Source of the DNA: Aphelidium insulamus | Lineage: Eukaryota; Aphelidiomycota; Aphelidea; Aphelidiaceae | Reading direction: 5' to 3' | NCBI GenBank assembly: GCA_036784855.1 | Contig: JAZDSV010000014.1 | Coordinates: forward strand, 186,001 to 250,000 | DNA length: 64,000 bases | Part shown: positions 52-62,483 of the stretch, piece by piece | Layout: each line of letters opens with the position of its first letter | Position numbering within the stretch: the first letter of the stretch is position 1 | Translations under genes and position numbers: made by a program | The notes under the pieces: generated by a model | Seen by the model: the letters and a program-made list of their open reading frames with translations, nothing else | What the model was told of the DNA's origin: nothing | The model's database searches: none

Positions 52-1176
52 ATGAAATGGCTTCGCGTAGTCGCCCTCTTGGCGCGCTTAATCGCTGTAT
101 TGGCTGCACCGCATCCGCATGGCAGACGTTCTCACCGGGTGTCACCCAAGGCTCATTCATTTGTGCAAGCTCCTCGTAATCATTGGCACCAGGGTGACGG
201 CGGTGCCGACTCACTTTGCGTAACAGCTGTACGGGCGGCCGCTGATTCCATTCCAAACTTGGCGCCTATTTCTCTTATTGGTCGCGGTCGTTACGGTGTG
301 GTGTTGCTGGTGCGGCGAAAACACGAAGGCTCACTGTGCGCGTTAAAAGTACTGCACCTCACGGACGACGAAGTGCTCAAGACGGTCGACGCGGAGATCA
401 ATGCCATCAAATTCAGTAGTACACATCCGTACATAGCGGCACCGACAGAAGTTTACCGGCGTGACGGCATGTGCATGCTGCTGCTCGACTTTAAGCGGCA
501 CGGCGACCTGGACACCATTCTGGCTAGGCGTAGCAGCCCCTTGTGCACAAATGTTGTCCGCCTGTATGCCGCTCAATTGATTCTCGCACTGCAACACATT
601 CATGATGCGGGTTTAGTGCACCGCGATGTGAAGCTTGAAAACATTCTGGTGGGCAGCGATGGGAACGTGGCGTTGGCGGATTTCGGATTGTGTCGAGTGG
701 GCGTGAACAAGGGACAGTTAATTGCTGGAACCCTTTGTGGCAGTCTGGAGTATACAGCTCCAGAGATCATCAACGGGGAGCCATATGGGCATGCCGTTGA
801 CTATTGGTCGCTGGGAGTGGCGCTGTACTACATGATGCGTCATCACTTTCCTCCCAGCTGCCATCTGTACTATCCTGACGGGTTTCCCGGTGACGCGGCC
901 AGTTTGATATCTGCACTGATGACTCGTGACCCTGCCGCAAGGTTTGGTAAAGATTATTCCGAGACTAGGGCACATCCATTTTTTCGCACGATAGTTTGGG
1001 ACGATATCTGTCAACGGGGCTACATACGTGGTGGATTCGTGGACTGTGAGCAAGTGGGTGGCGGAGAGCAGCCGTGTGACCATCACGCAGTTGCGGCACT
1101 GTTCGACACAACTGATGTGGCCGTGTCCATCGGTCAGTTCGCAGGATTCGATTCATTAGTAGATGGAGGTTGTTGA
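52..1176 (+). CDS. Secreted AGC-like Ser/Thr protein kinase (SK1)
   Basis: 374-aa intronless kinase. Residues 1-19 form a signal peptide (MKWLRVVALLARLIAVLAA), followed by about 60 low-complexity residues and a full kinase domain. Visible motifs are the glycine loop GRGRYG, the ATP lysine in ALKVL, HRDVKLEN, DFGLCR and APEII. The LCGS-x-EY-x-APE activation segment is typical of the AGC group (PKA/AKT/RSK-like). All catalytic residues are present, so it is probably active, but the signal peptide predicts action in the secretory pathway or outside the cell. It is the first of three same-strand intact-looking paralogues. Only 51 bp of upstream sequence is visible, so its promoter is cut off. Secretion is inferred from the N terminus alone. 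Confidence 0.85.
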   Translation: MKWLRVVALLARLIAVLAAPHPHGRRSHRVSPKAHSFVQAPRNHWHQGDGGADSLCVTAVRAAADSIPNLAPISLIGRGRYGVVLLVRRKHEGSLCALKVLHLTDDEVLKTVDAEINAIKFSSTHPYIAAPTEVYRRDGMCMLLLDFKRHGDLDTILARRSSPLCTNVVRLYAAQLILALQHIHDAGLVHRDVKLENILVGSDGNVALADFGLCRVGVNKGQLIAGTLCGSLEYTAPEIINGEPYGHAVDYWSLGVALYYMMRHHFPPSCHLYYPDGFPGDAASLISALMTRDPAARFGKDYSETRAHPFFRTIVWDDICQRGYIRGGFVDCEQVGGGEQPCDHHAVAALFDTTDVAVSIGQFAGFDSLVDGGC

Positions 1177-1251
1177 GATATCTGGTCCATCAATTGCGCC
1201 GTTGAGCTATTTATCATTAGCACGATTTTTCCCACCCGAACGATCCATCAG

Positions 1252-1256
1252 CCAAT
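1252..1256. promoter_or_regulatory. CCAAT box upstream of SK2
   Basis: CCAATCA about 100 bp before the SK2 ATG at 1353. The same heptamer recurs before many secreted-protein genes here. Confidence 0.4.
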
Positions 1257-1352
1257 CAACAACAATCCGCGCGATCCGATCTTCTGCATCGAAGCTGCAC
1301 TGATAGCCAATGCATCGCGCTGCAACTCACAATCTCCACTCACTCTTTCATC

Positions 1353-2552
1353 ATGCGAAACCTTCTAGCCGCATTTGTTGTACTGGTTCACATGCATATT
1401 ATATTAGGCTCTCCGCTGTGGCGTAAACTGTTTCACCGCGGAGGACAACCAGCACACAACGTGCGTTTGACATTGTTGTATTTAGCATACCTCTAATGAA
1501 AGCAGCGCGATCAGAGAAACGAAAATGAATGCGAAGATGCGGTCGTTCTCGAATTACTACAGTTGCTTGCGCCAAGTGGAATAGAAGGCGCCATCATGGA
1601 CTCGACACTATATCTTTCTGACATAAAAGTACTTGACTGGCTACAGAAAGGTTCTTTTGGCACAATGTACCGCGTCCAATATAATGACCCGGAGAGTTAC
1701 TACGATGAGGAGCTGGCAATGAAAGTGATCACGGCACAATCGGTGAAGAAAATCCAGCAGGAGCTATCTTGCTTAAAGCTGGAGCCCCATCCTTCAATCG
1801 TTCGGTTTCGAGGTGCCTTCCCCATCCCGTCGACAGAAACAACATGCATCATAATGGACTTTTACCCGGGTGGTGATTTGTCCGCGTTACATCAGAAGCG
1901 ATTCCTTACTGATAGACAAATCGTGCTCTATGCGGCCCAGATAGCCCAAGGCATAGAGCATTTGCACCAGCACGGTATCGCCCATCGAGACATTAAACCT
2001 GAGAATATTCTAATCAGGGCGGATGGATATGCAGTGATTACTGATATGGACAACTGTAAGGTGGGCATTCGCCAGAATAGCATGATGACAACATACTGCG
2101 GAACGGCGGATTACATGGCGCCAGAGGTTCATTCAGGAGATCCCTATGATCGCAGTGTGGACTGGTGGTCGCTTGGCGTTACGGTCTACGTGATGGTCAT
2201 GCGTGATTATCCGTTTGCCGTGGACGAGGAGAACGTAGACAAGCGCGTCATCCGCGATAATGTCGTCAATCGCAATTTCAAACACAGATGGCCGATAAAA
2301 GAGGTTTCGCGGGATATCCGCAATTTCATTGGAGCTCTGTTGCTTACAGACAGACAATCACGTTTGGGTGCCCGAGACGATGCTGATGTCATATCGCATG
2401 CAATGTTTGCAGGTCTACAGTGGGACAAACTTCTTCAGCGTCAAATTCCAATGGGGTTTACCCCTGAGCGATATTGCGGTAATACGCTTGAGGATAAAGA
2501 CCGCAAAATGTTTAAGGGATTCGGTTTCTCCACCTTGAAGCCCAGGAAATAA
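1353..2552 (+). CDS. Secreted AGC-like kinase with DMD in place of DFG (SK2)
   Basis: Two exons, 1353..1460 and 1506..2552, separated by a 45-nt phase-0 intron that contains an in-frame stop; the spliced product is 384 aa. Exon 1 is exactly 36 codons and encodes a signal peptide (MRNLLAAFVVLVHMHIILGS). The kinase domain shows a modified glycine loop (QKGSFG), lysine in AMKVI, HRDIKPEN, CGTADYMAPEV and an AGC-style C-terminal WDKLLQRQIPMGF segment. The metal-binding DFG is replaced by DMD, keeping the first Asp but losing the Gly, so activity may be altered. The start was chosen because it adds a signal peptide and the intron boundaries preserve frame. Starting within exon 2 would leave the kinase without a leader. 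Confidence 0.82.
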
Positions 2553-2725
2553 TTATAATAAAGTTTTCATGCAGAACAAAGGAGCCAAAGTTGAGGAGCC
2601 AAACCAGCTTGACCAGCTTCCAATACTAGCGTAATAAATGCAAGAAAATTACTGCCGTCAGCTTTCTAAGATTCTTACACAGATATTCCGCACATTCTCT
2701 TGGTCGGTCTCGATCCACGACAGAA

Positions 2726-3931
2726 ATGCGATTCTGTCTGCTCGTGGCGCTCGTGTTCTGCAGTGCACTTTATGGACGGGCAGCACCTCAAGGGCGCGAG
2801 GCGCTGCTAGAATGCACCGCGAGCCTCGGCACTGCATCACCCCGTCACAAGGAGCCTACTGCACCACAAGAGGAAATATGCGACGAGGATGAGCATGCGA
2901 CGGGTCATGTGGCTCGAGGCGAAAACGATTGCGATGATTATGGGCTAGATGGGCACTTGTCCGCCGACAAGAGTGCAAACGATAAATGCCATTCAGAACT
3001 TTCAGACTTGGAACCGGTATCACTACTGCGTCGCGGTGGCTTTGGCGCGGTGTACTTGGTGCGAGATGAACGAGACGCCTACAAGCGTCTACTGGCCCTC
3101 AAGTTGATGCATCTTAACGACGAGGTGGCGCTCAGCACCGCGCGTAACGAGATGAATGCCGTTAAAATCGACCCGCATCCGTTTATTCTAGCACCATTAA
3201 GGGCATTTTGCAGCAGCAGCAAGTCGGCCCTGTTATTGAACTTCAAATGCTACGGAGACCTTTACGACGTGGTTGAAAAGCGTGGCGTGCTCAGCGAAGA
3301 ATTCGTTCGCAAATGTGCCGCCCAGCTCATCCTGGCCATTGATCACATTCACGACGCCAGTATCATACACCGCGACATCAAACTGGAGAATGTTCTCATT
3401 GGTGATGACGGTTACGTTGTGCTGGCGGACTTTGGATTGTCAAAAGCTGGCGTAAATCGTGGCGAGCTAGTCCGCGGTACACTGTGTGGAAGCCAGAGCT
3501 ATATTGCTCCAGAGATGATGGCCAGAAGGTGCTATGGTCACATGGTGGACTTTTGGTCGCTGGGCGTTACGATATACACCATGCTGCAAGGTGGCTATCC
3601 AATTTACGACCAGAAGGATTTTCTTGATTTTGTGCGCCCTCAGATCAACTTTCCGCGCTACATATCATCGCGTGCCAAGTTGCTGATAGGAGACCTACTT
3701 CATCCAAATGCCGCTGAAAGATTCGGGTCGAACAGAGATACCATGCGACACCATCCATTCTTTAATGGGCTGGACTGGGAGGAATTGGCGCGACGCGAAA
3801 CCCCCATCGCGCTGCACTACGATCTTGGTGAATTCCATGGTAAATTGCTGAGCGATCAAGAGGCCGCCAATTTGCGGCAACAACTCAATGTGCTGGCTGC
3901 TGAGCATCGGAATGGTTTTCGGCCCTTCTAA
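2726..3931 (+). CDS. Secreted AGC-like Ser/Thr kinase (SK3)
   Basis: 401-aa intronless paralogue of SK1. The signal peptide is MRFCLLVALVFCSALYGRAA, followed by an acidic linker to about residue 90. The kinase domain has glycine loop RRGGFGAV, ALKLM lysine, HRDIKLENVL, DFGLSK, LCGSQSYIAPEM, and an AGC tail region (HPFFNGLDWEEL). All catalytic residues are present. It lies 173 bp after SK2 on the same strand. A polyadenylation-like AATAAA sits about 40 bp after the stop. Predicted to be secreted or secretory-pathway resident; substrates unknown. Confidence 0.85.
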   Translation: MRFCLLVALVFCSALYGRAAPQGREALLECTASLGTASPRHKEPTAPQEEICDEDEHATGHVARGENDCDDYGLDGHLSADKSANDKCHSELSDLEPVSLLRRGGFGAVYLVRDERDAYKRLLALKLMHLNDEVALSTARNEMNAVKIDPHPFILAPLRAFCSSSKSALLLNFKCYGDLYDVVEKRGVLSEEFVRKCAAQLILAIDHIHDASIIHRDIKLENVLIGDDGYVVLADFGLSKAGVNRGELVRGTLCGSQSYIAPEMMARRCYGHMVDFWSLGVTIYTMLQGGYPIYDQKDFLDFVRPQINFPRYISSRAKLLIGDLLHPNAAERFGSNRDTMRHHPFFNGLDWEELARRETPIALHYDLGEFHGKLLSDQEAANLRQQLNVLAAEHRNGFRPF

Positions 3932-4081
3932 GCATGCCACTCATACTTTCTTAAAGTATGTAAGGTAAACTGAAATAAAAACTTAAACCGGGACAAAAAA
4001 ACTGTTACTGGTTAGGGAAAATGAAGTCTGCTACATACGCTTGAATATGTCGTAACCAGGGGGTCACATCACTAATGGCGG

Positions 4082-4086
4082 ATTGG
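4082..4086. promoter_or_regulatory. ATTGG (CCAAT) box upstream of SK4
   Basis: GGATTGG about 50 bp before the SK4 ATG. Confidence 0.35.
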
Positions 4087-4134
4087 ATATCCCCCACCCC
4101 TGAAACAATCGTTTTTTCTTAATTTTTTTGCGCA

Positions 4135-5391
4135 ATGAGATTTTCGCCGGCCATTCTCGTACCTCTGCTGGCACCTATTGCCGCCACCTCTCCAGTCAAT
4201 TTGGATTCCAATGGGAAGATTCGAGATGATAGCTTGACAGAAGTATGTTACTGGGAAGGTCATAATGAGACTGATCCAACGGCAGGAAAATACTTTTGAA
4301 CGCGAGATGAAAACCCTGGAGACGGAAATCGACGCGCTTGCTAGGAACCTTGACAAAATTGCACTCGGCTCGCAGTTGTCAAATGCACAACGAGCGGAAA
4401 CTGCACCTGCGCAGGATGTGTTCATCGTGCGCGAGTCTCTAAACATTGATGACGAGTTTGGAGCGTCGATTACAAATCCGAATGATTTCCAGCGCAGGTG
4501 TCGTTTGCACAAGGGTGAGTTCGGGAGCATCGATCTAGTTGCATGCAATGGCCGCAATTATGTCATGAAAAGTATCTACAACAAAGGTGGCCTGGACGCG
4601 CAGAAAGCCCAGAATGCAGAACTATCCGCGCTGAAGAATCTGACACCTCATCCGTTTTTATCTGCTGCAAAGTGTGCCTTCGTTTACCCCAAGGATACTG
4701 TTCACCTAGTCATGGATTACAGACAAGCTGGAGATTTGATTACGCTACTGATCAACCGAAGGAATTCTTTCCCGATGGATACGGCGATGTTCTACGCGGC
4801 GCAGCTAGTATCGGCCTTGCAGCACATGCACAATTCCAACTTTGTCCACCGGGATGTCAAGCCGGATAACATGTTGCTACTTTCCATGGATATATAGCGC
4901 TGGGAGACTTTGGTTTTTGCAAGCAAGTCGAGTCCAAAGATGATACCCATCTTACAACTACATGTGGCACCGTTCCATATTGTGCTCCCGAGTTGCTTTT
5001 GCGAACGCCATACGGCCGCTCGGTGGACTGTTGGTCGTTGGGTGTTAGCGTGTATGGCATGACAACTTTGGGATTCCCATTTGACGCGCAAGAGGATCCG
5101 AATTCGGCAGCCGGGCGACGACTTCTGACCAGTCGGATTACGAGCGGCATGCGTCACGAATATCCCAAGAATTTTCTACCGGAAATAAGAAACTTGATAG
5201 ACGGACTGTTGAATCGAGACGTTGAAGGGAGATTGAGCTTCTTTGATAAGATTCGTCGTCACGCCGCATTTGCCAGCATTGACTGGGAAAAGTTGGAGCG
5301 GCAGGAGCTGGAGGCGCCTTGGATTCCGGCATCTGAGTCCGTAAACGTTGCCGAATCGCCAACTGGCTACTTGAAAGACTTTGATTCCTAG
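4135..5391 (+). CDS. Secreted AGC-like kinase, frameshifted (SK4)
   Basis: Exon 1 4135..4242 (36 codons, signal peptide MRFSPAILVPLLAPIAATS), a 43-nt phase-0 intron 4243..4285, then 4286..5391. Glycine loop HKGEFG, YVMKSI lysine, HRDVKPDNMLL, then, in another frame, GYIALGDFGFCK, CGTVPYCAPEL and the AGC tail IDWEKLERQELEAPW. The frame breaks at about 4880-4889, just after the catalytic loop; adding one base restores a 404-aa reading frame. The break is next to a TTT run, so a sequencing indel is as likely as a pseudogene. Exon 1 has the same length and phase as that of SK2. Confidence 0.75.
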
Positions 5392-5642
5392 AACCCAAAC
5401 GTCATCGAATAGATCAAATATTTAGTCCTTTGGCAATTCCCTTGATGTACATACAACGCACCCTGTACTAAGTACATATTTGTTTGCTCACGCTGAGACC
5501 ATAATGTGTTCCACGACGTGGCATAACACTAGTGCAAAGCCTTGAACCCGCAGAGTCTGACTGCAATTGAGTTGACTAATATCCAACACCAAAGCTACAT
5601 CGGTCAATCAACTTCTGCGGAAATTCGCATTCAGTATTTCCC

Positions 5643-8600
5643 ATGACGGCCGTCGCGCCCCCGAAAAAGGTTTGCGCGCCATTTTCGCCGCGGTGCATTG
5701 CGGTACACACATGAAAATGGCTGACACCCCGCGTAGACCGCCAAGCGCGATGCCCTGATCGACATTGAGGCCCGCATGCAGGGCTACTGGGAGTTGGAGC
5801 GCGTGTTCGAGGTGGACGCGCCGCCCGCCGACTCCCCGGACCGCTCCCAGCCCAAATACATGGTGTCGTTCCCGTTTCCGTACATGAACGGGCGCTTGCA
5901 TCTGGGGCACTCGTTCTCGCTGAGCAAGTGTGAGTTTGCCGCCGGCTATGAGCGTCTGAAGGGCAAGCGCGTCCTGTTCCCGTTTGGCTTCCATTGCACT
6001 GGCATGCCCATCAAGGTATGTCTACCACTTGTATATAATTTTAAGTAAGTCTATATATACTTATCATTGCAGGCATGCGCGGACAAACTTCGCCGTGAGA
6101 TCGAGCTGTACGGCAATCCACCCGTGTTCCCGTCGGATGGGTCTGCGGACGTTGAAGTGGAAGAGGTTGAGGAGGCCAATGGCGGTCATGCACCAGCAAC
6201 AGCAACAGCAACCTCGACCATCAAGAAGAAGGGCAAGGTGGTGGCCAAGAGCACCGGCAAAAAGTATCAGTGGCAGATAATGGAGAGCATGGGCGTCGAT
6301 CCTGCCGACATTGCCAACTTTGCAGACCCGCGCTACTGGCTGGTGTACTTTCCTCCCCGCGCTCAGGTGTGTTCATTGTATCTTATTCCACTATTCAAAT
6401 ATCTCCATTAAATAACATCATTTGTAGGCCGACTTGAAGCGCCTGGGCGTGAAGGTGGACTGGCGGCGCTCATTCATCACCACGGACGTTAATCCGTACT
6501 TTGACTCGTTTGTGCGATGGCAGTTCCGCCGCCTCAAGGCCGCCGACAAGATCAAGTTTGGCAAGCGGTACACCATCTACTCGCCGCTGGATGCGCAGCC
6601 GTGCATGGATCACGACCGGCAGACGGGCGAGGGTGTGGCGCCGCAAGAGTACACGCTGATCAAGCTGGAGCTGCAGCGGCCGTACCCTCCGTGCCTGCAG
6701 TCGCTTAACGGCGCAGATGGGCTGAAGGTCTATTTGACGGCCGCTACACTCCGTCCAGAGACGATGTACGGCCAGACCAATTGTTTTGTGGGGCCCGCGC
6801 TGCAGTACGGTGCCTACCGCGTATCCGACACCGAGGTGTTTGTGTGCACCGAGCGGTCGGCGCTTAACCTGGCCTACCAGGGCTACACTGCGCCAGGAAA
6901 GCAACTTGGCCAGACGGACAAGATGGCCGAGATCACTGGGCGTGAGCTGGTTGGCTGTAAGGTGAAGGCGCCGCTCTCCGCCTACCCATCCGTCTACGTT
7001 TTGCCCATGGATAGTGTGCTCGCCACCAAGGTGCGCTCATCATAAATACTTGCATTTAAATAGCTAACCGGAAATTCTTAGGGAACGGGCGTGGTTACGT
7101 CGGTACCGAGTGATTCTCCGGATGACTATGCCACACTGATGGACTTGAAGAAAAAGACGGCCTACTACCAGATCCAGGATGAGTGGGTGCAGCCATTCGA
7201 CCCGCTGCCCATCATCGACACGCCCACCTACGGCAACATGGCCGCGGTGACGGTGTGCCATGAAATGAAGATCAACTCGCCCAAAGACCGCAAACAACTC
7301 GACCTGGCCAAGGAGAAGGTGTACAAGGAGGGTTTCTACAGCGGCACCTTGATCGTGGGCGATTTCGCGGGCACCTCTGTGCAGGACGCCAAGCCGCTGA
7401 TCAGGCAGCAAATGATTGCCAGCGGTCAGGCGTGTCCCTACTGGGAGCCTGAGGGTCTGGTGATGTCGCGATCTGGCGACGAATGCGTCGTCTGTTTGAC
7501 TGACCAGTGGTACTTGAACTATGGCGAGGAGTCCTGGAAGGCGGACGCTTTCCGGTATGTATAAGGTGTGTGGGCGTGTGTGCAATGATTGCATTCAACT
7601 TTAGTGCACTGGACCGCATGAAATTGTACCACGACGAAGTGCGCAACTCGTTTGTCAAGTGCTTGGAGTGGCTGCGTGAGTGGGCCTGCTCGCGCTCATT
7701 TGGTCTCGGCTCCAGACTGCCGTGGGACGACCAGTGGCTAATTGAGTCACTGTCGGACTCGACCATCTACATGGCATACTACACGGTGTCACACTTTTTG
7801 CAGAGTTCGTAGGGACAGTAATTTTGATCAAGGTTTAATATATGTGCAGGCTCCCTGGACGGGTCGGTGGCGGGACTGGCGCATATTGACGCCAAACACC
7901 TCACGGACCAGGTGTGGGACTTTATCTTCACCGAGACAGCGCCGATGCCAAGCGACTCGCCGATTGCGCCAGAGACGCTGAAGCGCGTCCGCGACGAGTT
8001 CACCTACTTTTACCCGCTGGACCTGCGCGTGTCTGGCAAGGACCTGGTGAACAATCATCTCACATTCTTCATCTACAACCACATCGCTCTGTTTGGCGAG
8101 GACAAGTGGCCGCTCGGGATCCGCGCCAATGGCCACCTGCTGATCAATAGCGAGAAGATGTCCAAGAGCACCGGGAACTTTCTCACACTCAGCGAATCCA
8201 TCGACCAGTTCTCGGCGGACGGTACGCGGTTCGCACTGGCCGAGGCAGGTGACGGCGTGGAGGACGCCAATTTTGAATCCGACATTGCCAACAGCGCCAT
8301 TCTGCGTCTGTTCACGCTCAAGGAATGGATGGAGGAAACTATGGCCGATGCCAAGGCGGGCAAATTGCGCCAAGACACCGCTGACACATTCAACGATCTG
8401 GCCTTCCTCAACGACATCAACAATTTGATCCGCCTGGCTGACGGGGCGTATGCAGGGCAAGTGAATGTATCAAAGTATCAAACTAACCCCAACACAGAAT
8501 GCTCTACTATGAGGCGGTCAAGTACGCCTTCCACGAGCTGGTCAACGCCAAAGATCGCTACGTGTTTGTGTGCAGCACCACCGCGGTGCCCATGAAACGT

Positions 8601-9384
8601 GCAGTGGTGGAGCGATACATTCGCGTGCAAGCCTTGATGATGGCGCCAATCGTGCCGCACTTTTCCGAATATGTGTGGCGCGACGTGCTTGGCAATGTGA
8701 GTATCGTATACAACACTGTGTAGATTATAACACATGCCTTTTGCTGATCATTGTGTAGAATGACTCTGTGATGCGCGCACTGTGGCCCGCCGTCGAGAGT
8801 GAGGACCGCGCTGTACTGGAGGCCAAGAACTATGTGGACCGCGTACGTCGCGAGGCCGGTCTGGGACTCATCAACGAGACGCAGCCCAAGAAGAAGAAGA
8901 GCGGCAGCAAACCCGCTACACCTGCCGACAATAGCACGCCACCCGCGCCGAAGACAATGCACGTCTACATTGCCAGTGAGTTCCCGCCGTGGCAGTCCGC
9001 CGCCATCACACTCCTGCGGTCCGTCTATGACGCGACCACCGGTTCGTTCCCGGACTTCAAGGTCATCAGCCAGCTGGTGGCCAAGGACGCGGACATGAAA
9101 CCCCACATGAAGCAGAAGAAACTGATGCCGTCATGCGGGAGATCATGGACGCGGTGCTGGCGCGCGGCCCGGCAGCGTTTGACCGCACGTTGCAGTTCAG
9201 TGAGCGCCAGGTGCTGGAGACGAATGCAGAGCTGTTGCGCCTATGCTTGGGCATGGAGAAAATTGTCATTAAGGATGCCGCGCAGGCAATTGACTCTGAA
9301 GCTGCTACTGCCACTGACAAACTGAAACGGGTTGCAGACTTGGCCGAACCTGGCGTGCCGTCCTTTTACTTTGCCGCCGAGTAG
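5643..9384 (+). CDS. LARS1: Cytosolic leucyl-tRNA synthetase
   Basis: Charges tRNA-Leu in the cytosol. Nine exons: 5643..5669, 5737..6015, 6073..6366, 6428..7030, 7082..7554, 7605..7804, 7850..8447, 8498..8696, 8759..9384. All introns are GT-AG, 45-67 nt, and phases agree. About 1099 aa, slightly shorter at the C terminus than animal LARS1 (about 1176). The HIGH-type motif is HLGH after [10 protein letters not shown], and the KMSKS-type motif is KMSKS in exon 7 ([10 protein letters not shown]). The first exon is only nine codons; it was chosen because the next exon has an upstream in-frame stop and begins after an AG. The frame breaks at about 9127-9132; one inserted base restores it. An essential gene is unlikely to be truly broken, so this is probably a sequence error. 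Confidence 0.95.
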
Positions 9385-9447
9385 AGCGTCAAGTGTAGAC
9401 CTATCAACTAAAAGATTATATCCAGTGAAATAAGTGTGATGCTTGTA

Positions 9448-10623
9448 TTATGAAAGTAGTTCCTCAAATAGTCCCACATCCATGTCGGGAGCTGTTGACA
9501 ATGGCGGTTTCCACGGAGCTCCCAGTTCTTGACGCTCCAGTTTTGTCCAGTCAATATTCTCTAAGAAACGGTGGCTCTTTATATTGTTCACGAAAGCCAG
9601 TCTTGCTGCAACGTTTCGACTGAGCAGACCATTCATAAAGTCGATAGCTTCCGGCGAGATGCCTGTTCTGCACGGTTTTGGACGCTTGAAAAGTATATTT
9701 GAGCGCGTAACGCTAATGGTGCCATCCTCATTGCTAAAAGGAAGATCGGCGTGAAGCAAAGCGTATAAAACGACGCCAAGCGCCCACCAGTCAACAGCAT
9801 TGCCGTACGGTACCAGTCGAGCATTCAGCATATCTGGCGCCAGATCATCATCAGAGCCGCAGAGTTCTTGCAACACAAACACCTTTGGGAACGCCGTTTG
9901 TGCAACAGCCAAAGTCGGCCAATGTCACGTAACCATTTTGGTCCAGCAAGATATTTTCCGGCTTTACATCGCGATGTATGAATCCTAGGTTGTGTAGGTA
10001 ATCCAGTGCTAGCACAAGTTGTGCGATGATAAATCTCGCTTCATTTTCGGAGAACGCGTGGGCAGTCTCTCCAAATATCGCATCCCACAAGTCTCCGCCG
10101 CTCCTGTATTCCATCACCAGGTGGCAGGTGTCGGGAAAATCAAATGCCATCCGGGCGTTGCTCAAGAATGCGTTGGGAGGCAATTGAGTGGCCAGAATTT
10201 CCGCCTCTAGTGCTTTACTATGTTGACCGCTTATTCCTTTCTTCATTGTTTTGATGGCATAAACGCGGTCCTCAAGCTTGAGGCACTTCACTGTTCCAAA
10301 CGCACCTTCACCTATTGCAGTCCCCTGCTCCAGCTGATGAAGAACATCTGAAGCAGATACAAGAGCCGGGGGAGTGAACCCAGCCTGTTGATCTATTTCA
10401 AGCCGCGTATCTTGAGCATACGTTAATGATGGGTTTGACATTTGAAGTCCTTTGGGGGACGGCAGAGTCTATGTCACCACATTAGCTATTGTAACTAGGT
10501 ACATGAGACAACACAATTTACCGCATCATCACGAGGTAAACGATGCTTTAACAAGCCGGCAGGAGCAGCAGAAGCCTGTAACGTCAAAAAGCATAGCCAC
10601 GCCAGTTGCCACCCCAATTTCAT
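9448..10623 (-). CDS. Secreted AGC-like kinase, frameshifted (SK5)
   Basis: Minus-strand exons 10623..10522 and 10468..9448 with a 53-nt phase-0 intron. Exon 1 gives signal peptide [20 protein letters not shown]. The kinase domain has glycine loop [13 protein letters not shown] lysine, [11 protein letters not shown] and ADFGCC. The frame breaks near 9862-9866, just before the LCGS activation segment; restoring a CT dinucleotide joins it to DLAPDM...[13 protein letters not shown] and the AGC tail [15 protein letters not shown], giving 374 aa. The APE motif reads APD, so even a repaired protein may be less active. It faces LARS1 tail to tail with a 63-bp gap. Confidence 0.75.
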
Positions 10624-11087
10624 ATTGATCTTTTTGCAGTTACGAGCAGCCGGTAATCGCGAGATGCGCGAGATGTGCACGTGCGCGATCAATGCATCCT
10701 TGATCCAAGCGATCTTATTGGTCGCCTACAAAGACGGCATCTCATTGGATACCACGCGCGGCATCAAAATCAAATCAGTCACACTTCAACGAATAACAGC
10801 AGTAAATATTCCAAACACTGCTATGTACGTCGGCCTTGGTTATCAGTGTGTGAGTGAGTGTATATAACACGCCTATAACAGGCCTAAGTGTATATAACAC
10901 GCACGCTTGCTAAAACGTTCCACATGCATCCATGCAGCACATGTCAAATACAATACTTTCCACTCTGTTTTCGTGATGCCTACCGTTGTGCAAGGAAGCG
11001 AACGAAGCAGGATAACTCTATAGTTTAAATCAAGTGAAGTTTTTACACTGAACTGATCAGCGTCATCCTCGGATCACGATCGCGCGC
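10624..11087. other. Divergent intergenic region
   Basis: 464 bp between the starts of SK5 and the coiled-coil gene. It holds a CCAAT box and two copies of GTGTATATAACACGC about 30 bp apart near 10857 and 10889. I see no gene in it. Confidence 0.5.
10717..10721. promoter_or_regulatory. CCAAT/ATTGG box upstream of SK5
   Basis: ATTGG on the plus strand, about 95 bp before the minus-strand SK5 ATG. Confidence 0.3.
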
Positions 11088-12137
11088 ATGGCTCTCTCGG
11101 AGGACATGGACGAGATGTTTGCACGGCTAGAAGAGTTGGCAGAGCGTCAACGTCGCATCGCCACTGATCACTTTTGCGTGGACGAGCCGCCGCTACACAC
11201 GGAGCAAATGTACGTAACGGACCTCCGGCACTGCACGTTACTCGCACATATCTTACGTAAGCATGGCAGGATACTTGATGAGCTGGACGAGAATCAGCAA
11301 CCACAGCAGCCGGGTGCGGAAGATAGCCGCGCCCAATTCGCACGAAACGCCGAGATGTTCTCCAAGAAGGAGCAAGAGATGTCGGCCGTCCTCAGCAAGG
11401 TACTACTTTGTGTACTTAATATATATATATATATATGTATATAATATATAATATATAATTTATATTTTATTATATATAATATATATTGTACTTATGCGTC
11501 TGTAGTTGGAACATATAATATAATATATAATTTATATATAATATATATATATTGTACTTATGCGTCTGTAGTTGGAGCAGCTTGGAGAAGCAATGCAAGT
11601 TGCTGACACCTCGTATGATTATGATGGAATTATGTTATAATCGCCGTGTACAGCTCTGCGTTTGTGGACGAGAAGAGGCAACGACAACCCGAAGCCGGCG
11701 CCGCGGACCCGACCAGTCCGCCAGCTGCAACAAGCGCTTTGCCCACTTTGCACGCAAAACAAGTTGGCAGTACTGATTTGGCACACTTGAGACGTAGACT
11801 TCCCTCATATCAAGCTGGCGGCGCTGCATCAGCGATGTCACCGCCGCTGGCATCGGAGGATTTGGGACAGTACCCTGGTGGTTCAACGTCCGCGAGTCCG
11901 GCGCACTCCATCAAACCGTTGCGCAATGCCAGCTCTGAAGAGTCGCTGAACTCGCAGCATGCGTACGAAACTGCTGTGGACAAAGGTGGAGAGCATAGCG
12001 AGGCGGAGCTCAAGGGCCAGACTTCTCGTGGCACACCCCGCCATATCAGAACAAGAAGCAAGAGCGTACAGCACTTTGCTGCTATGGCGCCGGGCCTCTC
12101 GTCTGCTGCTACATATGATAATAACGCGGACTCATAG
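11088..12137 (+). CDS. Coiled-coil protein of unknown function
   Basis: Exons 11088..11399, 11572..11612 and 11654..12137 give 278 aa. The N-terminal part (residues about 1-115) is rich in charged heptads typical of a coiled coil (MFARLEELAERQRR). The rest is Ser/Ala/Pro-rich and probably disordered, with an LRRRLPSYQ patch near residue 150. The first intron (172 nt) is AT-rich and contains a duplicated 3' splice-site region. The second is 41 nt, phase 2. I do not recognise the family. Confidence 0.65.
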
Positions 12138-12323
12138 TCATATTTAACCTGTCCGCTTTGTCTATTCAATCGGATCACTGTCCAATGTGTCTACGGCATT
12201 CACTGCCCACTTGAGGCAGACGGCGGACAGACTGCACAACAATAATGGTTTCCACATTATCCACAGATTATTCGAGGACGTCGATTTTCCAGTACGCCTA
12301 CGGGGTTCCTCTAGCTCCTGTCG

Positions 12324-13390
12324 TTACAGTTTTACCCAGTCCGTTTTTTTGAAGAAACTGTGCGACTCGATTCTATTTGCAAATTCAAGTCTTCTCTGAA
12401 CGTCTCTGTTGAATACGCCTTCAAGAATATCCTGTGTAGCTGCGGTAAGACCGCGGGGAATGTTTCTTCGCCGGTTTGTCAGTATGGCATTAAAAATGGC
12501 ATTATCTGTACTGTCATAGTCGGAGAAGGGCGGGAAGCCAGCAATCATGTAATGCAGGGTCACGACAAATGACCACCAGTCCACTGATCGTCCATAATCT
12601 TTGTTTTCCAAGATTTCAGGAGCCATGTAGTCGGGCGTTCCTTCATGTTGATCTGGCGTGGTTTTGACAACTCCGTCTTCGCCGTCGATTCTTTTTGCGA
12701 ATCCGAAATCTGACAGCAATGCGTAACCGTTTGCGCAGAATGTTATTTAGCTTGACGTCGCAATGAAGAAAACCATGATTATGCATATGGTTCAGAGCCA
12801 TTATTATCTGAGCAGCATAAAAGACAATTTGCTCCATATCAAAAGGTCCTTCCCATGTCAATGAATCCCACAATGTGCCACGATATTTGAAGTCCATGAT
12901 CAATACGCATATATCGGCTCGATTGATTGCCATTCGTGCGCAGCACACGTTCGGATGCGAAGGCAGATTCATGAGCACATTAATCTCCGCATTGATACAG
13001 CGATACGCATCCTTTGCTTCCTCTTCGCTGAGGCCAGACTTAATATCGTTTTCAGAGCATACATAGACTCTCTATGGCCATACAAACCTACTGATCCTTG
13101 ACCACCATCTGCAATATGGCCAACGCGGGTGTATTCTTCGAGATCTGGACTTATATAATCGTTCGTTCCTGTTTTTCCAGCGGCGGATGAAAATAAATGT
13201 ACTGGCCTGCTATAACTTCCGAAATAGATATCATCCGCAGCGGGAGAAAGTTGCAAGGTCTTTCTCGGGACTAGGTAATGAGAAACATGTATTATAGTTC
13301 ACTGTAACATATACCTTTTCTTAAACGAAATGGAGCGGAAAAGGTTAAAGCAATAAGCATAGGTATCAAAGTAATCCATTGAGCTCGCAT
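12324..13390 (-). CDS. Secreted AGC-like kinase with HCD motif, two frameshifts (SK6)
   Basis: Exon 1 13390..13315 encodes signal peptide MRAQWITLIPMLIALTFSAP; a 44-nt phase-1 intron is followed by 13270..12324. Kinase pieces run in three frames. The first holds a degenerate glycine loop (ADGGQGSV) and YALKTI; the second LSEEEAKDAYR through VLIMDFKY to HCDVKLNNIL; the third LLSDFGFAKR, GTPDYMAPEI and FFKKTDWVKL. Breaks lie near 13046-13053 and 12727-12733, both beside A runs. The HRD arginine is Cys. This is the most eroded full-length member: either a pseudogene or a divergent kinase with two sequence errors. Confidence 0.65.
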
Positions 13391-13471
13391 CGGTCAAATT
13401 TTTTTTGGCAAAAATGAGTAGAAAGCTTGTTTCATGCTCGGATTCCGAGCTACAGCAGATCGTTGGCTCCG

Positions 13472-13476
13472 ATTGG
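13472..13476. promoter_or_regulatory. CCAAT/ATTGG box upstream of SK6
   Basis: ATTGG on the plus strand, 82 bp before the minus-strand SK6 ATG. Confidence 0.3.
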
Positions 13477-13638
13477 ACAAGAGTTCGCGCATCGCCTTTA
13501 GAATGCGCAATTTACGTCAAGCAGTGGTATAATGATTTTATTGCTGCTCATCTGATCATCGATATGCCGGGAAGAACTCTGACATCTCTTCGTTGCTTAG
13601 TTGACATGGTCCCAAATGTGCTTGATAGATCTGGCTTT

Positions 13639-14649
13639 CTAAATCTTCCCAGTTGTGTCTGTGAAGAAAGGATGCTCTTCAATGTGATTGGCGAATTCAT
13701 CCCTAATTTGTGGGTCTTGACACAGTAATCCGTCCAGAAATGAGGTTAGTTGTTCAGGACTACTTTTGGGATAATCTTTTCGCTTTCCCTCCAACACATT
13801 GAGCAGCACCTGGCTTACCCCCGTACATTGATTTGTTATAAACGGGTGATATCTCAAGCGCATGAGGTGCGCAGTGACCCCGAGTGACCACCAATCCACT
13901 GGGTATCCATATTTGTTGTGTTTCAAGACTTCTGGTGCGGAATATATTGGTGTCCCGTGATATACCGTGGGATCGATCAGTTCGATTTGCGACGAATGGC
14001 CGAAATCACCAACTGTTATCAAACCTCGCTGATCAAGAAATATGTTTTCAGGTTTAATATCTCGATGCACAAATCCATGTTTGTGAATGTGCCGAACGGC
14101 TAGCACAAGTTGACCCACATACCGTACACAAGTTTCGCTGTCGAATTCCCGTCCTCGTTGTTCTAAAAGCTGCGCTAGATTTCCGCCACTTTTAAAGTCC
14201 ATAATGAATACGCACATATCAGTTCGGTCAAACGCAACATGTGCACAGCACAAGCTAGGGTGGGATGGGATCTTTGAGAGTACATTCAGTTCCGCCTTGA
14301 TCGATTCCAAACCTCTTCCTTTTTTCAATATCATTTTCAACGCGTACATTTGTGTTCGAACTCTGCAGACGTAAACTTTTCCTTCAGCGCCTTCTCCAAT
14401 TAATTTTCCACGTTCGTAATTCTCTTGTTGTAAACAAGCTGCCATTCTGTCCGATTTGAAGTATGTTGCGAGAGGGGGGCTGTCTGACTCGCAGGACTGC
14501 TCCTCTCGCACTTTGTGGTGCTCGCGCAAAACTTTAAGCAATCGGTTCAGACCTGCGATAAACACATCGCCAGGACTTTGGAGCCGGAGCGGAGCGGAAT
14601 GGCTCGCGCTAATCAATGTGACCAACGAAAGTATCCAGAGAGTTTTCAT
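13639..14649 (-). CDS. Secreted AGC-like Ser/Thr kinase (SK7)
   Basis: Intronless, 336 aa from the internal ATG at 14649, chosen because it exposes signal peptide MKTLWILSLVTLISASHSAP; the open frame extends 27 codons further upstream across the CCAAT box. The kinase domain has GEGAEGKV glycine loop, ALKMI lysine, HRDIKPENIFL, GDFGHSS, GTPIYSAPEV and VDWWSLGV. All catalytic residues are present. It ends soon after HPFF, so the AGC tail is shorter than in SK4 and SK5. Confidence 0.85.
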   Translation of the reverse strand: MKTLWILSLVTLISASHSAPLRLQSPGDVFIAGLNRLLKVLREHHKVREEQSCESDSPPLATYFKSDRMAACLQQENYERGKLIGEGAEGKVYVCRVRTQMYALKMILKKGRGLESIKAELNVLSKIPSHPSLCCAHVAFDRTDMCVFIMDFKSGGNLAQLLEQRGREFDSETCVRYVGQLVLAVRHIHKHGFVHRDIKPENIFLDQRGLITVGDFGHSSQIELIDPTVYHGTPIYSAPEVLKHNKYGYPVDWWSLGVTAHLMRLRYHPFITNQCTGVSQVLLNVLEGKRKDYPKSSPEQLTSFLDGLLCQDPQIRDEFANHIEEHPFFTDTTGKI

Positions 14650-14712
14650 CTTTTGGAGTGTGAGTGCAGCCGACTGATGAAGCGATCGCTGCATCCGAGA
14701 TTCGCAGAGCAT

Positions 14713-14717
14713 CCAAT
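14713..14717. promoter_or_regulatory. CCAAT box upstream of SK7
   Basis: CCAATCA on the plus strand (TGATTGG in the gene's sense), about 65 bp before the ATG at 14649. Confidence 0.4.
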
Positions 14718-14832
14718 CAGAAGCATGCATGGCTAGGGCGGTTTTTACCTCACTCTCCTCTCTACTAAGATCTCTACTAAGATAACAGAGTAACTACAAC
14801 AATAAATGACAAGTGTTTATAGGTTTTTTTGG

Positions 14833-15151
14833 CTAGGGAGACGGCTTCCACGGAGCATCGACTTCTTGACGCAGCAACCCCATTTTCCCAATCGTAACAA
14901 AAATGATCTTTAATGGAATCGACAAATGCAAGTCGGTAGCAATATTTGGTTCCAATAAACCTTCAACAAGCTTTCTTATAGGTTTTGGCAGTTTCTCGAT
15001 ATCTTTTTTCTCGTCATAGTTCATTGCTCCATCTAGTCCGTGATTGAATGGAAAATCCCTGAGCGCTATTGCATGTTGTTATCAGTCCGACAGGTACTGC
15101 AGTTGCACCAGGTGCTAGAAGGCATGGCATCATCAACAGCGAAAATCTCAT
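14833..15151 (-). pseudogene. Internally deleted secreted-kinase relic (SK8)
   Basis: Starts with signal peptide MRFSLLMMPCLLAPGATA, closely similar to the SK4 leader. After about 30 codons the sequence jumps, in another frame, to the C-terminal kinase lobe: RDFPF (compare RDYPF in SK2), PIRKLVEGLL and the tail VDAPWKPSP. The glycine loop, lysine, HRD, DFG and APE are all missing. A single internal deletion keeping both ends explains it. It still has a CCAAT box 55 bp upstream. Confidence 0.7.
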
Positions 15152-15232: not shown

Positions 15233-18200
15233 CTATGCAAAAGATTTAAGAGCGACCGTTTGACGGCCAAGAAGCTGCAGCGCGTCCGACATCACTCTGT
15301 GGGAATCGCGCGACCGTGCGTTGAAGGGATACGATTTCACTGTGAAGAGCAGAAATTCGCGGACCGACGCATCCGTGCAACCTTTTCTGGCAACTACGAT
15401 ACAGTAATCACAGCATAGCGCCAGCGTTTCTTGCTCATCGTCGCCACAATCCGAGCATCGTGCAATCATTTCTCGACATATTGATTCCGCGGTGTTGAGG
15501 TCGCCATGGGCTAGCGCAGCGTCGATAATGAATCCCAAGCTTGAACAAAGCAGGTGTCTGCTTTCCTCCGTGCAGTCGGCATGATCTTGGACAGCTCGCA
15601 GAATTCCCGGAGAGTACAAGAGTCCGGCGCATAGAGAGAGAACTGCCATTTTCTTCTTGAACAAATTATTGGAGCGTTTGCAGATCAGTTCACGAATAAT
15701 CGCCAGTCTATCGTTCGATAGTCGGATTTGAATCGGTACCAGTATATCATCAACGTCGCGGTCGGAATTGTAGTGTTCGCAACATTCGGCACAACAACGA
15801 ATAAATTCCAATTCTCGGCGCACCTTGGCAACTGACTCCGCGGAGAGTTTACGCTGTGGAACCACCGTCAGGCACTCCAACGCCAGCTGCATGTTTGGGT
15901 CATCTAGCGATCCCGATTCGGCATTGTCAAGAAAACTGGTAGAGGCGTTGATAAAAAGGGCAACGATTTCGTCAGACGGTAGCGAAACCAATGGGGTGGC
16001 GTTCGACCCGGCACCAAATGCCAGCTCCGCAACAGTTGTGAATTCCCTCGTTTCACTAAGGGCATTCGAGATTATTTCGGCTTGTGTTTTTTTGGAATCT
16101 ATCAGCGGACAGCACAGTCGTCGAACACCCTCTGTAGTGACGAGAAGCTCCTGTACTGAAATTAATGAGTAACTGGTTTCAGTTCCGAACTGCATCCGCA
16201 AGCATCGGCGAAGAAAACGAGATTGTCCGTCTACATCACCGTCAAGCGCTCGGAGGGCTGCAGGTGAGGGTGCGTCCATAAATGTCGAAACCATCTCGGA
16301 GATTGTAAACAAATCTGAAAGCTGCTTGACGTGCTGGCTGCTAAACGATTTTGCGTTCATTGCATTGATTTTGCGAACGGTGTCGGCAATTATAGCTATC
16401 GAGCTGGTGTCCGGAGCAGAGGCTGTAAAGATTAACTCAAAGAGACAAACGTTGTTGGTTCACCTGTTAATATGCAGTCCATGATTGTGGACGCCAATGT
16501 ATTCAGCAATTCGGGCATTTCTTCCAGCGCAGTCAACAGCAAATAGGCGAAAGCTAACTGGTCAGCACTAAACGCCGCAAAAACTTCTTTCCACAATCCG
16601 GTATCCGCGATCAAAGTAGTGTCTGACTGCTTCCACTGCAAGGCTGGTATCACAAAATCTCTGAATTTGAAAGCAAAGTTTGATAAATCGCGACCGTTTC
16701 TCCGCCACTCCAAAACGTCCGACGTGCACAGCATTTCACCAGATCGGAAGCTGATTTGCTCATTAGGTCCGCCAGCGTCAAATCTATAAAGGCGCTGTTT
16801 GAATCGTACAAAATCGCTGCTAGCACCTTGAAGCCATGTTGTAGATCATGCAAGCCCGGCACATTGTTCCTAATCCCGATTTCAATCACCTGAGATGCGA
16901 TACTTGACTGCATGGATTTGCGATCGATAACTAGCGACCGGGCCAAGTACCACTCGGAAACTTTTGATGCCGCACATGGGTACTCCACTGTCGGTAATGC
17001 AGATGTAGTATCTTTGGACAGCGGAAGCTGACTGGTTATGCAATCAGTTTCAACCCAGTCTCGTACTCGCCAAGGTTTTTCAGTGTGTTCCATTTCCAAA
17101 TCACCTGCCGTGTTAGAAGGTAAAAGTGCTTCTAACTAACTAACTAACATTATTACCTGATATATGGACTGAACTAAGTAAATCTGCGTATTGATCCGGT
17201 TCAGCAACCTCGCTAATCTGATCTAGAATGTAAAATCGATGCCTTACAATTTGATCCGCGTGATGCAAGAACAGAAGGCGTAGTTGTTGAAACTGTCCAG
17301 TCCTAGCATAAATCACTGCTTGCTGCGGTAACTTGACGTCCCGAAATTTAGTGAAAGCCTGCTGAAAAATCGTGCGACCAGCATGTGATGCCACCTTGAA
17401 CTGAGCATCAGATTCCTCCGGAGACCATGTGCGCATTATTTCGCGACATGTCTGCAGCCGGTCCATGCACTGCAGAATTTGATATCGCATGTACGCCGTG
17501 CTGGCCTGTGACTCATCCAGCACTACATTCTTTAATCGTAGGTCCCAGTCGTCTGCGCTGCCACTCTGGCCGGCGAGCCGATCCAAAATATTGGTTAGAT
17601 TGAGACCGTACTCATATAGCAACTGCTGCGTTTCCTTATCGGCACACACTCGGTTCAAGCAAAAGTTGAGCTTCCACTTCCAGTCAGATATTTTGTCAAA
17701 ATATTCCGCCACAGTTTGGGCCGAAATCTCGGCCGCAGAGTCCAGCCACTGCGCTTTGAGAATATAATCGCTATCAAGTGAGTATCGCTCGGCAATTTCG
17801 GCAGCTTCATCATAGAGCCGACTTGAAATCTTGCTAAACATCAGGTCGAGTGGGCTTGTACGTTCAAATTCCCACAGCTGAAACCGTCGAAGCGGCACTG
17901 AGAATCCTTGACGTCGCTGCAGCGCCGAATCCTCGTCCTCAAAGTGCCACAGGAACGCATCTGTCAGCAGTGTGAAAGGCTTCATAAGGATGCTATTGAT
18001 AAAGAGCCGCTTGAGCAGTATCTGCTTCTGCTCTTTAGTGTGAGCCATCTTTGGTGCTGCAGAGTGCCATGATATTCCACCGTCAATCCGTTGCTTGCAG
18101 TCCACCTCGGCAATGGTACACGACAGTACCGTCAAGTGGTCCGCGCCTGAAGTCTTTGAAATGATGGCGGAGTCGGCAAATACTTCATTGGCATCCAAGT

Positions 18201-19629
18201 ACTCGCGACACGCCGGAGTGGTCAACTTGGCTATTGTCACGGCACCGTCGTCAAACAAGAGAACTGCGCTGGCTGGATCGTCGCGCCACCATGTGGCGAC
18301 AGAGAGTCGGCCTAACTGATCCTCCCTGCCGTCCAATATGGCATTGGACGGCCATGATTGCAGCAGCCGTTCGTCAGCCACAAAGGGTAAATCACCATGC
18401 TGGCGCTGCTGCTGTCCCGCCGACCAGAGCGCCATTCCTCCATCAGCCGTAACCGATAGGAGCTGAGATCCATCTTGGGACAGTGAAAGGCCGGTAATCA
18501 AATCACGGTGCCGCGATTTGCCCTCGCTGCGGCGAAACGACAACCATTGACGTATGCGCAGTGGCACGCGGTCCGCCAGTGAGTCGAGAAAACCTTTGGG
18601 ACATTCTGTCGCCTGCAGGCCGTTCAAACCCCTGTCCAAGCAATGATAATACGGAGGGTTCGGCGTGAGTTTCCACGTTGATATGCCAGACGCTTGAAAC
18701 GTGGAAATCGTGCCATCGCTGTTGGTGCACTGCATTAGCTTGCCCATACCACCCACCGCAAATGTGTGCGAGTGGCTGTCATACACGGCCGACGTAACCA
18801 TCAACATGTTGGGAAACTGAAAGGCGTGATCCATTTCAATTTCACAATCGCCGCTTGTGATGTCGGCCGATATTGGGGACTTGCATGAGATGAAGAAGCT
18901 GCGCAGAGAGCCGCTATATGATATGGACACAAGTTCGTAGTCTGGGGGACGGTCAGCTCCATCGGCATATCCTCGCCCCGCGGCTTTCGGGTCGGTGAAG
19001 AACAGAGCGGCAGACGGATCAAGTTCATCTTCGCCACACTCTTGCGCCTTCGGCACAGTGGCAATGCACTGACGGCTTCCGACGTTCACAATACTTATAG
19101 CACCGCTGCTGTGTGCGACGGCCAGCAATTTGGAGTCGAGCGACCAAGCTATGGAGCGCCACGACGGTGCAACATCGTCTCCAACGATAACGGCCGCATT
19201 CGGACGGTCCATGAGCAGGTCGTACTTGCCAGGCACTGCCGCTGTGTCAGCTGCATTCCCGCCGCCACCCGGTCCCTGCGTGCAGACCACCACACTGTCG
19301 TCCATCAGTAGTGCGACACACGAACCATCCGGCGCAGTCTGACACTGCCACGTCAGACGCTTAGTCCGACCAGCAAGCCCGCGGAGCAGTGACTCCAGAG
19401 AGCGCAACTCGGTGCCGAATCGCACTCCGTCGCCCCGAACACGGCGAGTGATGTGCGCGTGCACCAGCGCCGCGGCATCGGGAACGGCGCCGCCACCCGC
19501 GCCATTGACCATCAGTCCGCGCTGTGCCGATATCAAGTAGGAGCTGAGGAAATCCAGCTGGCGCTTGTCCGGCAGCCACTCGGCCACGAATTCCCGGCGG
19601 CACAGCATGCGCTCGCCGTCGTCCGACAT
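15233..19629 (-). CDS. NBAS: NBAS-like subunit of the NRZ/Dsl1 ER tethering complex
   Basis: Exons 19629..17157, 17104..16464, 16422..15233 with introns of 52 and 41 nt, both phase 1; about 1434 aa, shorter than human NBAS (about 2370). The N-terminal half is a WD40-like propeller (WSLDSKLLAVAHSSG). The middle holds the NBAS/Sec39 signature: AERYSLDSDYILKAQW, YQILQCMDRL and the FRDV...QAVIYARTGQFQQL block, continuing to IGIRNNVPGLHDL. Known NBAS links ZW10/RINT1 to ER SNAREs for Golgi-to-ER vesicle tethering. A one-base frame break at about 16733-16737 (GAAATG; one more A restores frame) is probably a sequence error. The start at MSDDGERML is preferred; an in-frame ATG lies 39 bp upstream. 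Confidence 0.8.
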
Positions 19630-35257: not shown

Positions 35258-35582
35258 GCTTGTGTGAGAAGTCTACTAGTCCTACTCGCCGTGACGGACG
35301 ACAGGGGGCCACCATAGAGTGCTGACACTGTGCTTGTGGGAATGTAATGCCGCCACCTGTTACAACATCTGTGCACACTGTAGCGGCCCTGTCAGATGGC
35401 GCAGCACCCACAGGCAGCTGTAAACACAACGCACACCGTCCACACCATTCCACACCTTTGCAGAGTGAGGGGCTTGTTTGTCGGCAAATCCGCGGACCCA
35501 ACCCCCGACACGTCAACACCGCGGCACCGATAACGGGCAAGAGTCATCCCGCAGCGCCACCAACAAACAAGCAGCTGGCGGC

Positions 35583-35589
35583 TATAAAA
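35583..35589 (+). promoter_or_regulatory. TATA box of the duplicated gene, copy A
   Basis: TATAAAA followed by GGCGGG, 148 bp before the ATG; conserved in copy B. The intervening leader is pyrimidine-rich. Confidence 0.7.
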
Positions 35590-62476: not shown

Positions 62477-62483
62477 TTTTATA
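62477..62483 (-). promoter_or_regulatory. TATA box of the duplicated gene, copy B
   Basis: TATAAAA on the minus strand, 150 bp before the ATG, matching copy A. Confidence 0.65.

What the first reader, a model, noticed from the sequence alone, without database searches (positions are those of the whole stretch)
52..15151. Cluster of AGC-like kinases that carry signal peptides
Eight kinase loci (SK1-SK8) in 15 kb each begin with a hydrophobic leader directly fused to an AGC-type catalytic domain. AGC kinases are normally cytosolic, and known secreted kinases (FAM20C-like, parasite rhoptry kinases) belong to other groups. At least SK1, SK3 and SK7 keep every catalytic motif. This looks like a lineage-specific expansion of exported kinases that could act on host, extracellular or secretory-pathway proteins.
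Basis: partly seen in the sequence, partly recalled or inferred. Interest (0 to 1): 0.88.

Follow-up and report, generated by a model that had tools for sequence, protein, structure and literature searches.

The report
Secreted kinase family in fungal relative
A little-known fungus-like microbe seems to have turned one ordinary cell-signalling kinase into a large family of kinases tagged for export, probably to act on the cells it lives in.

Summary
Seven of the eight loci carry an AGC-type Ser/Thr kinase domain behind a signal-peptide-like leader; the eighth (SK8) is a relic with leader and C-terminal tail but no catalytic core. In SK2, SK4, SK5 and SK6 the leader sits on its own exon before a 42-53 base intron. 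SK4-SK7 have frame breaks, but so does the leucyl-tRNA synthetase gene inside the cluster, so these may be assembly errors. The cluster runs on upstream (five more loci), and 28 such loci were counted on seven contigs. A passing leader precedes 21 of the 28, against 2 of 16 other kinases of the genome and 18% of random stretches. Twenty members tested form one clan. Best matches are Akt, SGK, RSK, S6K and PKC. N-glycosylation sequons are depleted in the mature proteins (11 against 26 expected) but not in the genome's other kinases. The genome looks like that of a zoosporic fungus or fungal relative without close named kin in the search. Best reading: one AGC kinase gained a signal peptide and radiated into an exported, probably host-directed family. 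Entry into the secretory pathway is well supported by sequence; host and target are inferred.

The parts
52..1176 (+). SK1, single exon, open: leader MKWLRVVALLARLIAVLA|AP, AGC-type kinase domain with all catalytic motifs, shortened between subdomains IX and XI
1353..1460 (+). SK2 exon 1: leader (36 codons)
1503..2552 (+). SK2 exon 2: kinase domain (DFG reads DMD; first loop glycine absent), tail ending in a hydrophobic-motif-like FKGFGFST; intron 1461-1502
2726..3931 (+). SK3, single exon, open: leader MRFCLLVALVFCSALYGRA|AP, kinase domain (first loop glycine absent), AGC-like tail; modelled
4135..4242 (+). SK4 exon 1: leader (36 codons); intron 4243-4285
4286..5391 (+). SK4 exon 2: kinase domain in two overlapping frames (to 4897 and from 4870); frame break between the HRD and DFG motifs
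5737..9384 (+). leucyl-tRNA synthetase gene lying inside the kinase cluster; used as control for frame breaks (one-base break near 9080)
9448..10468 (-). SK5 exon 2: kinase domain in two frames (10468-9851 and 9924-9448); frame break in the activation segment; APE reads APD
10522..10623 (-). SK5 exon 1: leader (34 codons); intron 10521-10469
12324..13270 (-). SK6 exon 2: kinase domain in three overlapping frames (two frame breaks); HRD reads HCD
13315..13390 (-). SK6 exon 1: leader (25 codons); intron 13314-13271
13639..14649 (-). SK7, single exon: leader and complete catalytic domain; frame break after the domain
14833..15151 (-). SK8 relic: leader plus remnant of a kinase C-terminal tail, no catalytic core

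Best explanation
These genes are part of a probably single-origin, lineage-specific family of at least 28 AGC-type Ser/Thr kinase loci in a zoosporic fungus or fungal relative. An ordinary AGC kinase gained an N-terminal signal peptide, in part as a separate leader exon, and then multiplied by local and dispersed duplication. The leader sends each protein into the ER, where it is cleaved (often at an A|AP-like site), leaving a linker and an otherwise ordinary AGC catalytic domain. The kinases then leave the cell and most likely act on proteins of the organism the parasite lives in or on. Shown from sequence: kinase domains, motifs, leaders, leader exons, clan, sequon depletion. Inferred: cleavage, secretion, activity, host target, and a parasitic way of life.
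Against: No SignalP-type program, transcript or proteome was available. The leader rule and the sequon test were devised after seeing the sequences. In the domain alone the contrast with other kinases is weak (7 of 5874 residues against 18 of 5955, Fisher p 0.043), and the C-terminal tails show no depletion (3 against 2.0). The N-glycosylation enzyme STT3 was not found by profile or motif, nor OST48 (whose control was empty), while an ALG7-type match was, so the reason for the depletion is open. Seven of 28 loci have no passing leader, and in a few leaders the rule's cleavage site lies implausibly far out (U2, C109b). Several members vary in HRD, DFG or APE and may be weak or inactive. Host and life style are unknown. 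Clan support is moderate, branches are long, and the clan's place among AGC kinases is unresolved.
Confidence: 0.6

Rival explanations
1. Kinases of the organism's own secretory pathway or surface: they enter the ER by the same leaders but stay in ER, Golgi or cell wall and phosphorylate the organism's own secreted proteins, as FAM20C does in animals.
For: Leaders and sequon depletion fit any route through the ER. Cys content of the domains is 2.47%, against 1.91% in the genome's other kinases examined and 0.99% in 120 AGC hits.
Against: At least 28 diverged copies, many in local clusters and with a relic, look more like a host-facing family than a housekeeping enzyme (inference). No FAM20 family among Pfam hits of five members, though function could be alike without kinship.
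Confidence: 0.2
2. The leaders are uncleaved N-terminal membrane anchors and the kinase domain faces the cytosol; the family is an expansion of membrane-tethered signalling kinases.
For: The AGC kinases of Thecamonas trahens and of a EukProt entry labelled Amastigsp, among the best hits, begin with a hydrophobic segment followed by Arg residues (P0020, P0115). Seven of 26 leaders have a 19-residue hydropathy mean of 2.0 or more.
Against: 19 of 26 leaders have a 19-residue mean under 2.0, and 16 of 26 have, by eye, a Pro close behind small residues. A cytosolic kinase would not be expected to lose sequons.
Confidence: 0.12
3. A decaying family: much of the cluster consists of pseudogenes, and the exported kinases matter little today.
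For: SK8 lacks the catalytic core; frame breaks in SK4, SK5, SK6 and SK7; upstream U1 lacks the N-lobe in its frame and U3 breaks off late.
Against: SK1, SK2, SK3 and upstream U2, U4, U5 are open throughout with Lys, Glu, catalytic Asp, Asn and DFG-Asp kept; the pieces of SK4 and SK5 keep their motifs on both sides of the break, save APD in SK5; the leucyl-tRNA synthetase gene is broken in the same way.
Confidence: 0.08

Closest known systems
FIKK kinases of Plasmodium falciparum
   Same: Lineage-specific family of exported Ser/Thr kinases said to descend from one non-exported kinase that gained an export element (PMC12137140, PMC7116245: start of abstracts in search listing).
   Different: Different kinase lineage (recalled: FIKK motif in subdomain II; here ALK, AMK, AVK and the like); PEXEL-type export in an apicomplexan (recalled) versus plain signal peptides in a fungal relative.
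Rhoptry kinases (ROPK) of coccidia
   Same: Expanded, lineage-specific family of secreted kinases and pseudokinases (PMC3682881: start of abstract).
   Different: The Kinase-like model PF14531 (recalled as built around rhoptry kinases) gives 22.7-33.5 bits in five members, at or over its cut-off of 25 in four, against 153-172 for PF00069.
Secreted kinase family of Plasmodiophora brassicae
   Same: A 20-member kinase family in the predicted secretome, absent from the oomycete and three fungi compared, Synchytrium endobioticum among them (PMC12503489: passages and section 7).
   Different: Rhizarian plant parasite (recalled); kinase group not stated in the parts I read; not compared by sequence.
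Kinase families among predicted host-exposed proteins of two microsporidia
   Same: Expanded kinase families among proteins predicted to meet the host, in relatives of fungi (PMC5423893: passages and section 10).
   Different: Species and kinase group not given in the parts I read; not compared by sequence.
CRN8 of Phytophthora infestans
   Same: Host-translocated effector with kinase activity (PMC3426532: start of abstract).
   Different: CRN family protein; no Crinkler match among Pfam hits of five members, and one match (29.4 bits, cut-off 24.6) in the whole genome.
FAM20C and other secretory-pathway kinases
   Same: Kinases in the secretory pathway (PMC5865150, PMC7948968: start of abstracts).
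   Different: Atypical kinases; the members here are canonical AGC-type by profile and fold.

Membership tests
AGC protein kinases | Catalytic domain closest to AGC kinases by sequence | tested here: met
   60 of 60 PDB sequences shown (of 2029) are Akt, SGK, RSK/MSK, S6K or PKC for the 15-member profile; 60 of 60 shown (of 2593) for SK3 alone are AGC
AGC protein kinases | Fold with AGC C-terminal tail over the N-lobe | tested here: met
   SK3 model only: the 50 entries shown are AGC; alignment runs to Akt1 residue 474, the hydrophobic-motif end
AGC protein kinases | Activation segment T-x-C-G-T..APE | tested here: inconclusive
   CGT or CGS in 11 of 25 members with that site (SK1-SK5, U2-U5, C110, C160a); the others lack the Cys
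AGC protein kinases | Pkinase_C domain (PF00433) | tested here: inconclusive
   Not found in 5 of 5 members at E up to 10; but AGC hits such as P0001 and P0020 lack it too
AGC protein kinases | Placement inside the AGC clade | tested here: inconclusive
   The clan lies between AGC references and the non-AGC kinases; neighbouring nodes 49 and 31
Secreted proteins with cleavable signal peptide | n-region, hydrophobic core, small residues at -3/-1 | tested here: met
   Own simple rule met before 21 of 28 loci and by 21 of 26 leaders. SignalP not available, so cleavage itself is not shown
Rhoptry kinases | Best match to the rhoptry-related model PF14531 | tested here: not met
   PF14531 far below PF00069 in five of five tested
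FIKK kinases | Phe-Ile-Lys-Lys in subdomain II (recalled) | tested here: not met
   Reads ALK, AMK, AVK, AIK, VMK or SMK where aligned
FAM20C family | Match to a FAM20C model | tested here: not met
   No such family among hits at E up to 10 for five members; HMMER's filters drop most weak matches
Crinkler (CRN) effectors | Crinkler N-terminal domain PF20147 | tested here: not met
   Not among hits of five members
Host-translocated effector kinases (functional class) | Delivery into host cells and kinase activity | not testable with these tools
   Needs proteomics, imaging and assay

The most novel reading that the evidence does not exclude
In an uncharacterised zoosporic lineage near the root of fungi, a single Akt/SGK/RSK-like kinase was turned into a secreted enzyme by gaining a signal peptide, and radiated into some 28 exported kinases largely purged of N-glycosylation sites: an independent fungal counterpart of the malaria FIKK and coccidian rhoptry kinase families, built from AGC kinases, a class that hosts use for growth and survival signalling.
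Probability: 0.5. Interest if true: 0.78.

Novelty: new variant of a known kind. Interest (0 to 1): 0.62.

Why it matters
Secreted kinase families are on record in apicomplexans, a plasmodiophorid, an oomycete and microsporidia. A family made from AGC kinases in a zoosporic fungal relative would add another origin, and would show that a kinase class built for the cytosol can be exported wholesale. The members are compact, many are single-exon, and activity and secretion can be tested directly. Loss of glycosylation sites offers a simple sequence test for other suspected exported kinases.

Tried and rejected
Close relatives: three protein searches. SK3 gave 257 proteins, best 120 listed, top 39% identity. 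The 15-member profile gave 426, best 120 listed; those rows are named mainly as generic AGC or Aurora kinases or unnamed, and I did not check their N-termini for leaders. eRF1 gave no close named kin in the best 120; closest by identity is an unnamed environmental protein at 85%. So spread of the family beyond this genome is untested.

Organism: EF-1a bears the insertion that I recall as typical of opisthokonts; chitin synthase matches are many (20 exon-level) and an IFT57 match is over its cut-off. eRF1 groups with six unnamed environmental proteins apart from the named fungi and animals (about 49 of the 120 listed hits used, node supports 88 and 69, midpoint root). I read this as a zoosporic fungus or fungal kin and could not name it. 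The small-subunit rRNA search never got an answer. ATP/ADP translocase: nothing, control empty. Crinkler: one match.

Mis-called starts: held unlikely. Rhoptry or FAM20 kinases: not met; their absence from the fold list alone shows nothing.

Literature: in the rows listed by searches I saw no secreted AGC kinase family in fungi. These lists were capped (15 of 23, 20 of 152, 20 of 58, 12 of 60, 12 of 452). One search (secreted, AGC kinases, signal peptide, fungi, lineage-specific) returned no paper, nor did (Ascetosporea). The library lacks most subscription papers. Passages of PMC10406608 gave nothing on this.

Cysteine enrichment looked large against the AGC hits (2.47 against 0.99%) but the genome's other kinases have 1.91%, so little weight is put on it. 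The 120 AGC hits show a sequon excess (330 against 230.4), but many of them are closely related to each other. In the tree two rows were dropped as too gappy (secreted member C160b, one other kinase); U1, SK4, SK5, SK6, C96a, C96c and C160a2 were not put in.
Full report
What is there. The first 15 kb of the window hold seven Ser/Thr kinase loci and one relic. The window is C42:186001-250000 of an 18 Mb, 169-contig genome. Pfam PF00069 is hit by 10 of 10 kinase frames given. SK1, SK3 and SK7 are single-exon genes; SK2, SK4, SK5 and SK6 carry the leader on a first exon of 36, 36, 34 and 25 codons, followed by GT-AG introns of 42, 43, 53 and 44 bases, with phase kept (introns read from sequence, no transcripts). 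SK8 is a leader plus a tail remnant like that of SK5. SK4, SK5 and SK6 are broken within the domain and SK7 after it. A leucyl-tRNA synthetase gene sits between SK4 and SK5 and has a one-base break of the same kind, so assembly error cannot be told from decay here.

The family beyond the window. Upstream on C42 five more loci show the same plan (about 163, 172.0, 181.7, 183.0 and 184.6 kb). Scans of fetched stretches around the best kinase matches add loci on C96, C109, C110, C120, C122 and C160. I count 28 loci with a kinase domain or part of one, SK8 apart. This is a lower bound: the kinase search scored 121 of 401 candidates, and I fetched only part of the places it listed.

Leaders. A simple rule (nine-residue hydropathy of at least 2.2 near the start, net charge before it not negative, no acidic residue up to the core's end, small residues at -3/-1) is met by 21 of 26 leaders against 55 of 1072 ATG-started stop-free 33-mers of the window (this null includes the window's leaders). 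Because those leaders were picked by eye, I repeated the test on any ATG within 600 bases upstream of the domain. 21 of 28 family loci, 2 of 16 other kinases, 367 of 2000 random stretches pass. The failures are U1, C122a, C122c, C96a, C160a2, C160b and C160c. By eye, 16 of 26 leaders have a Pro just behind small residues (AAP, SAP, TSP and the like). The first exons of intron-split controls may lie outside the 600 bases, which favours the contrast.

Topology. If the mature kinase enters the ER, asparagine sequons matter; if it stays in the cytosol they do not. In 21 single-frame members the mature parts hold 11 sequons where shuffling gives 26.0 (sd 4.7), and none of 5000 shuffles was as low. 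Look-alike patterns are at expectation (S/T-x-N 29 against 25.8; N-x-A/G 36 against 36.4; Q-x-S/T 26 against 25.1; D-x-S/T 60 against 54.2). The genome's other kinases show 40 against 45.8, with 1025 of 5000 shuffles as low. By part: linkers 1 against 4.6 (222 of 5000), tails 3 against 2.0, so the tails show none. In the domains the figures are 7 against 18.7 (1 of 2000), other kinases 18 against 22.2 (397 of 2000), pieces of broken members 1 against 5.0 (64 of 2000). Five other leader-bearing frames of the window have 2 against 6.8 (125 of 5000), so avoidance may be common in this secretome. A caveat: STT3 was not found by profile or by its WWDYGYQ motif, OST48 was not found but its control was empty, and a Glycos_transf_4 (ALG7-type) match was. 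The assembly may lack genes, introns may hide the motif, or the pathway may be reduced.

Activity. The beta-3 Lys, alpha-C Glu, catalytic Asp, Asn and DFG-Asp are invariant in the 15-row alignment. The rest of the motifs varies: DMD, DMG, DFN or DFD for DFG, IYNDLK or IHGDVK for HRD, APR for APE, and a missing first glycine in the loop of SK2, SK3 and U5. SK1 and SK7 keep every motif. Some members may be weak kinases or pseudokinases.

The organism. EF-1a with an opisthokont-type insertion (signature recalled), many chitin synthase matches and an IFT57 match point to a zoosporic fungus or fungal kin. Its eRF1 joins unnamed environmental proteins apart from named fungi and animals. A parasitic life is suggested by the small genome and the leader-rich families but is not shown.

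How it most likely works. The leader directs the nascent kinase to the ER; signal peptidase removes it; the protein is secreted and phosphorylates proteins of the organism it infects. A cytosolic AGC kinase brought into the ER would gain unwanted glycans, and loss of sequons is what one would expect. The spread of FIKK kinases from one ancestor that gained an export element (abstract start, PMC12137140) is the nearest parallel in process, without known common descent.

Known or new. Secreted kinase families are known in other lineages, including 20 members in P. brassicae (PMC12503489, section 7) and two microsporidia (PMC5423893, section 10). In the rows listed by my searches I saw no paper on a secreted AGC family in fungi. 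I class it as a new variant of a known kind.

Noticed in passing
window 39144-40193 (-) and 42182-43057 (-): Two paralogous ORFs (35% identity over 306 aa) with signal-peptide-like leaders and no Pfam match; with 24001-24435/24760-26148 (-), another related pair (43% over 49 aa), they suggest a secretome-rich locus.
   Followed up: partly
window 35326-36785 and 61371-62806: Inverted duplicate of about 1.4 kb, many frames 90-100% identical, no Pfam match in three frames tried; perhaps a mobile element.
   Followed up: no
L045, L046, L048, L052, L053 (contigs C86, C105, C150): By eye, receptor-like proteins: Ser/Thr-rich or Kelch-like outer part, one membrane span, and a TKL-like kinase domain; several copies.
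   Followed up: no
window 58059-61013 (+): Single ORF of 984 aa with PAZ and RNase III domains (Dicer-like).
   Followed up: no
window 15233-19671 (-): NBAS-like gene (Sec39 and Nbas_N matches in two frames), next to the kinase cluster.
   Followed up: no
whole genome: STT3 not found by profile or motif although an ALG7-type match is present.
   Followed up: partly
P0020, P0115: AGC kinases of Thecamonas and of an entry labelled Amastigsp with an N-terminal hydrophobic segment, possibly membrane-tethered AGC kinases.
   Followed up: no
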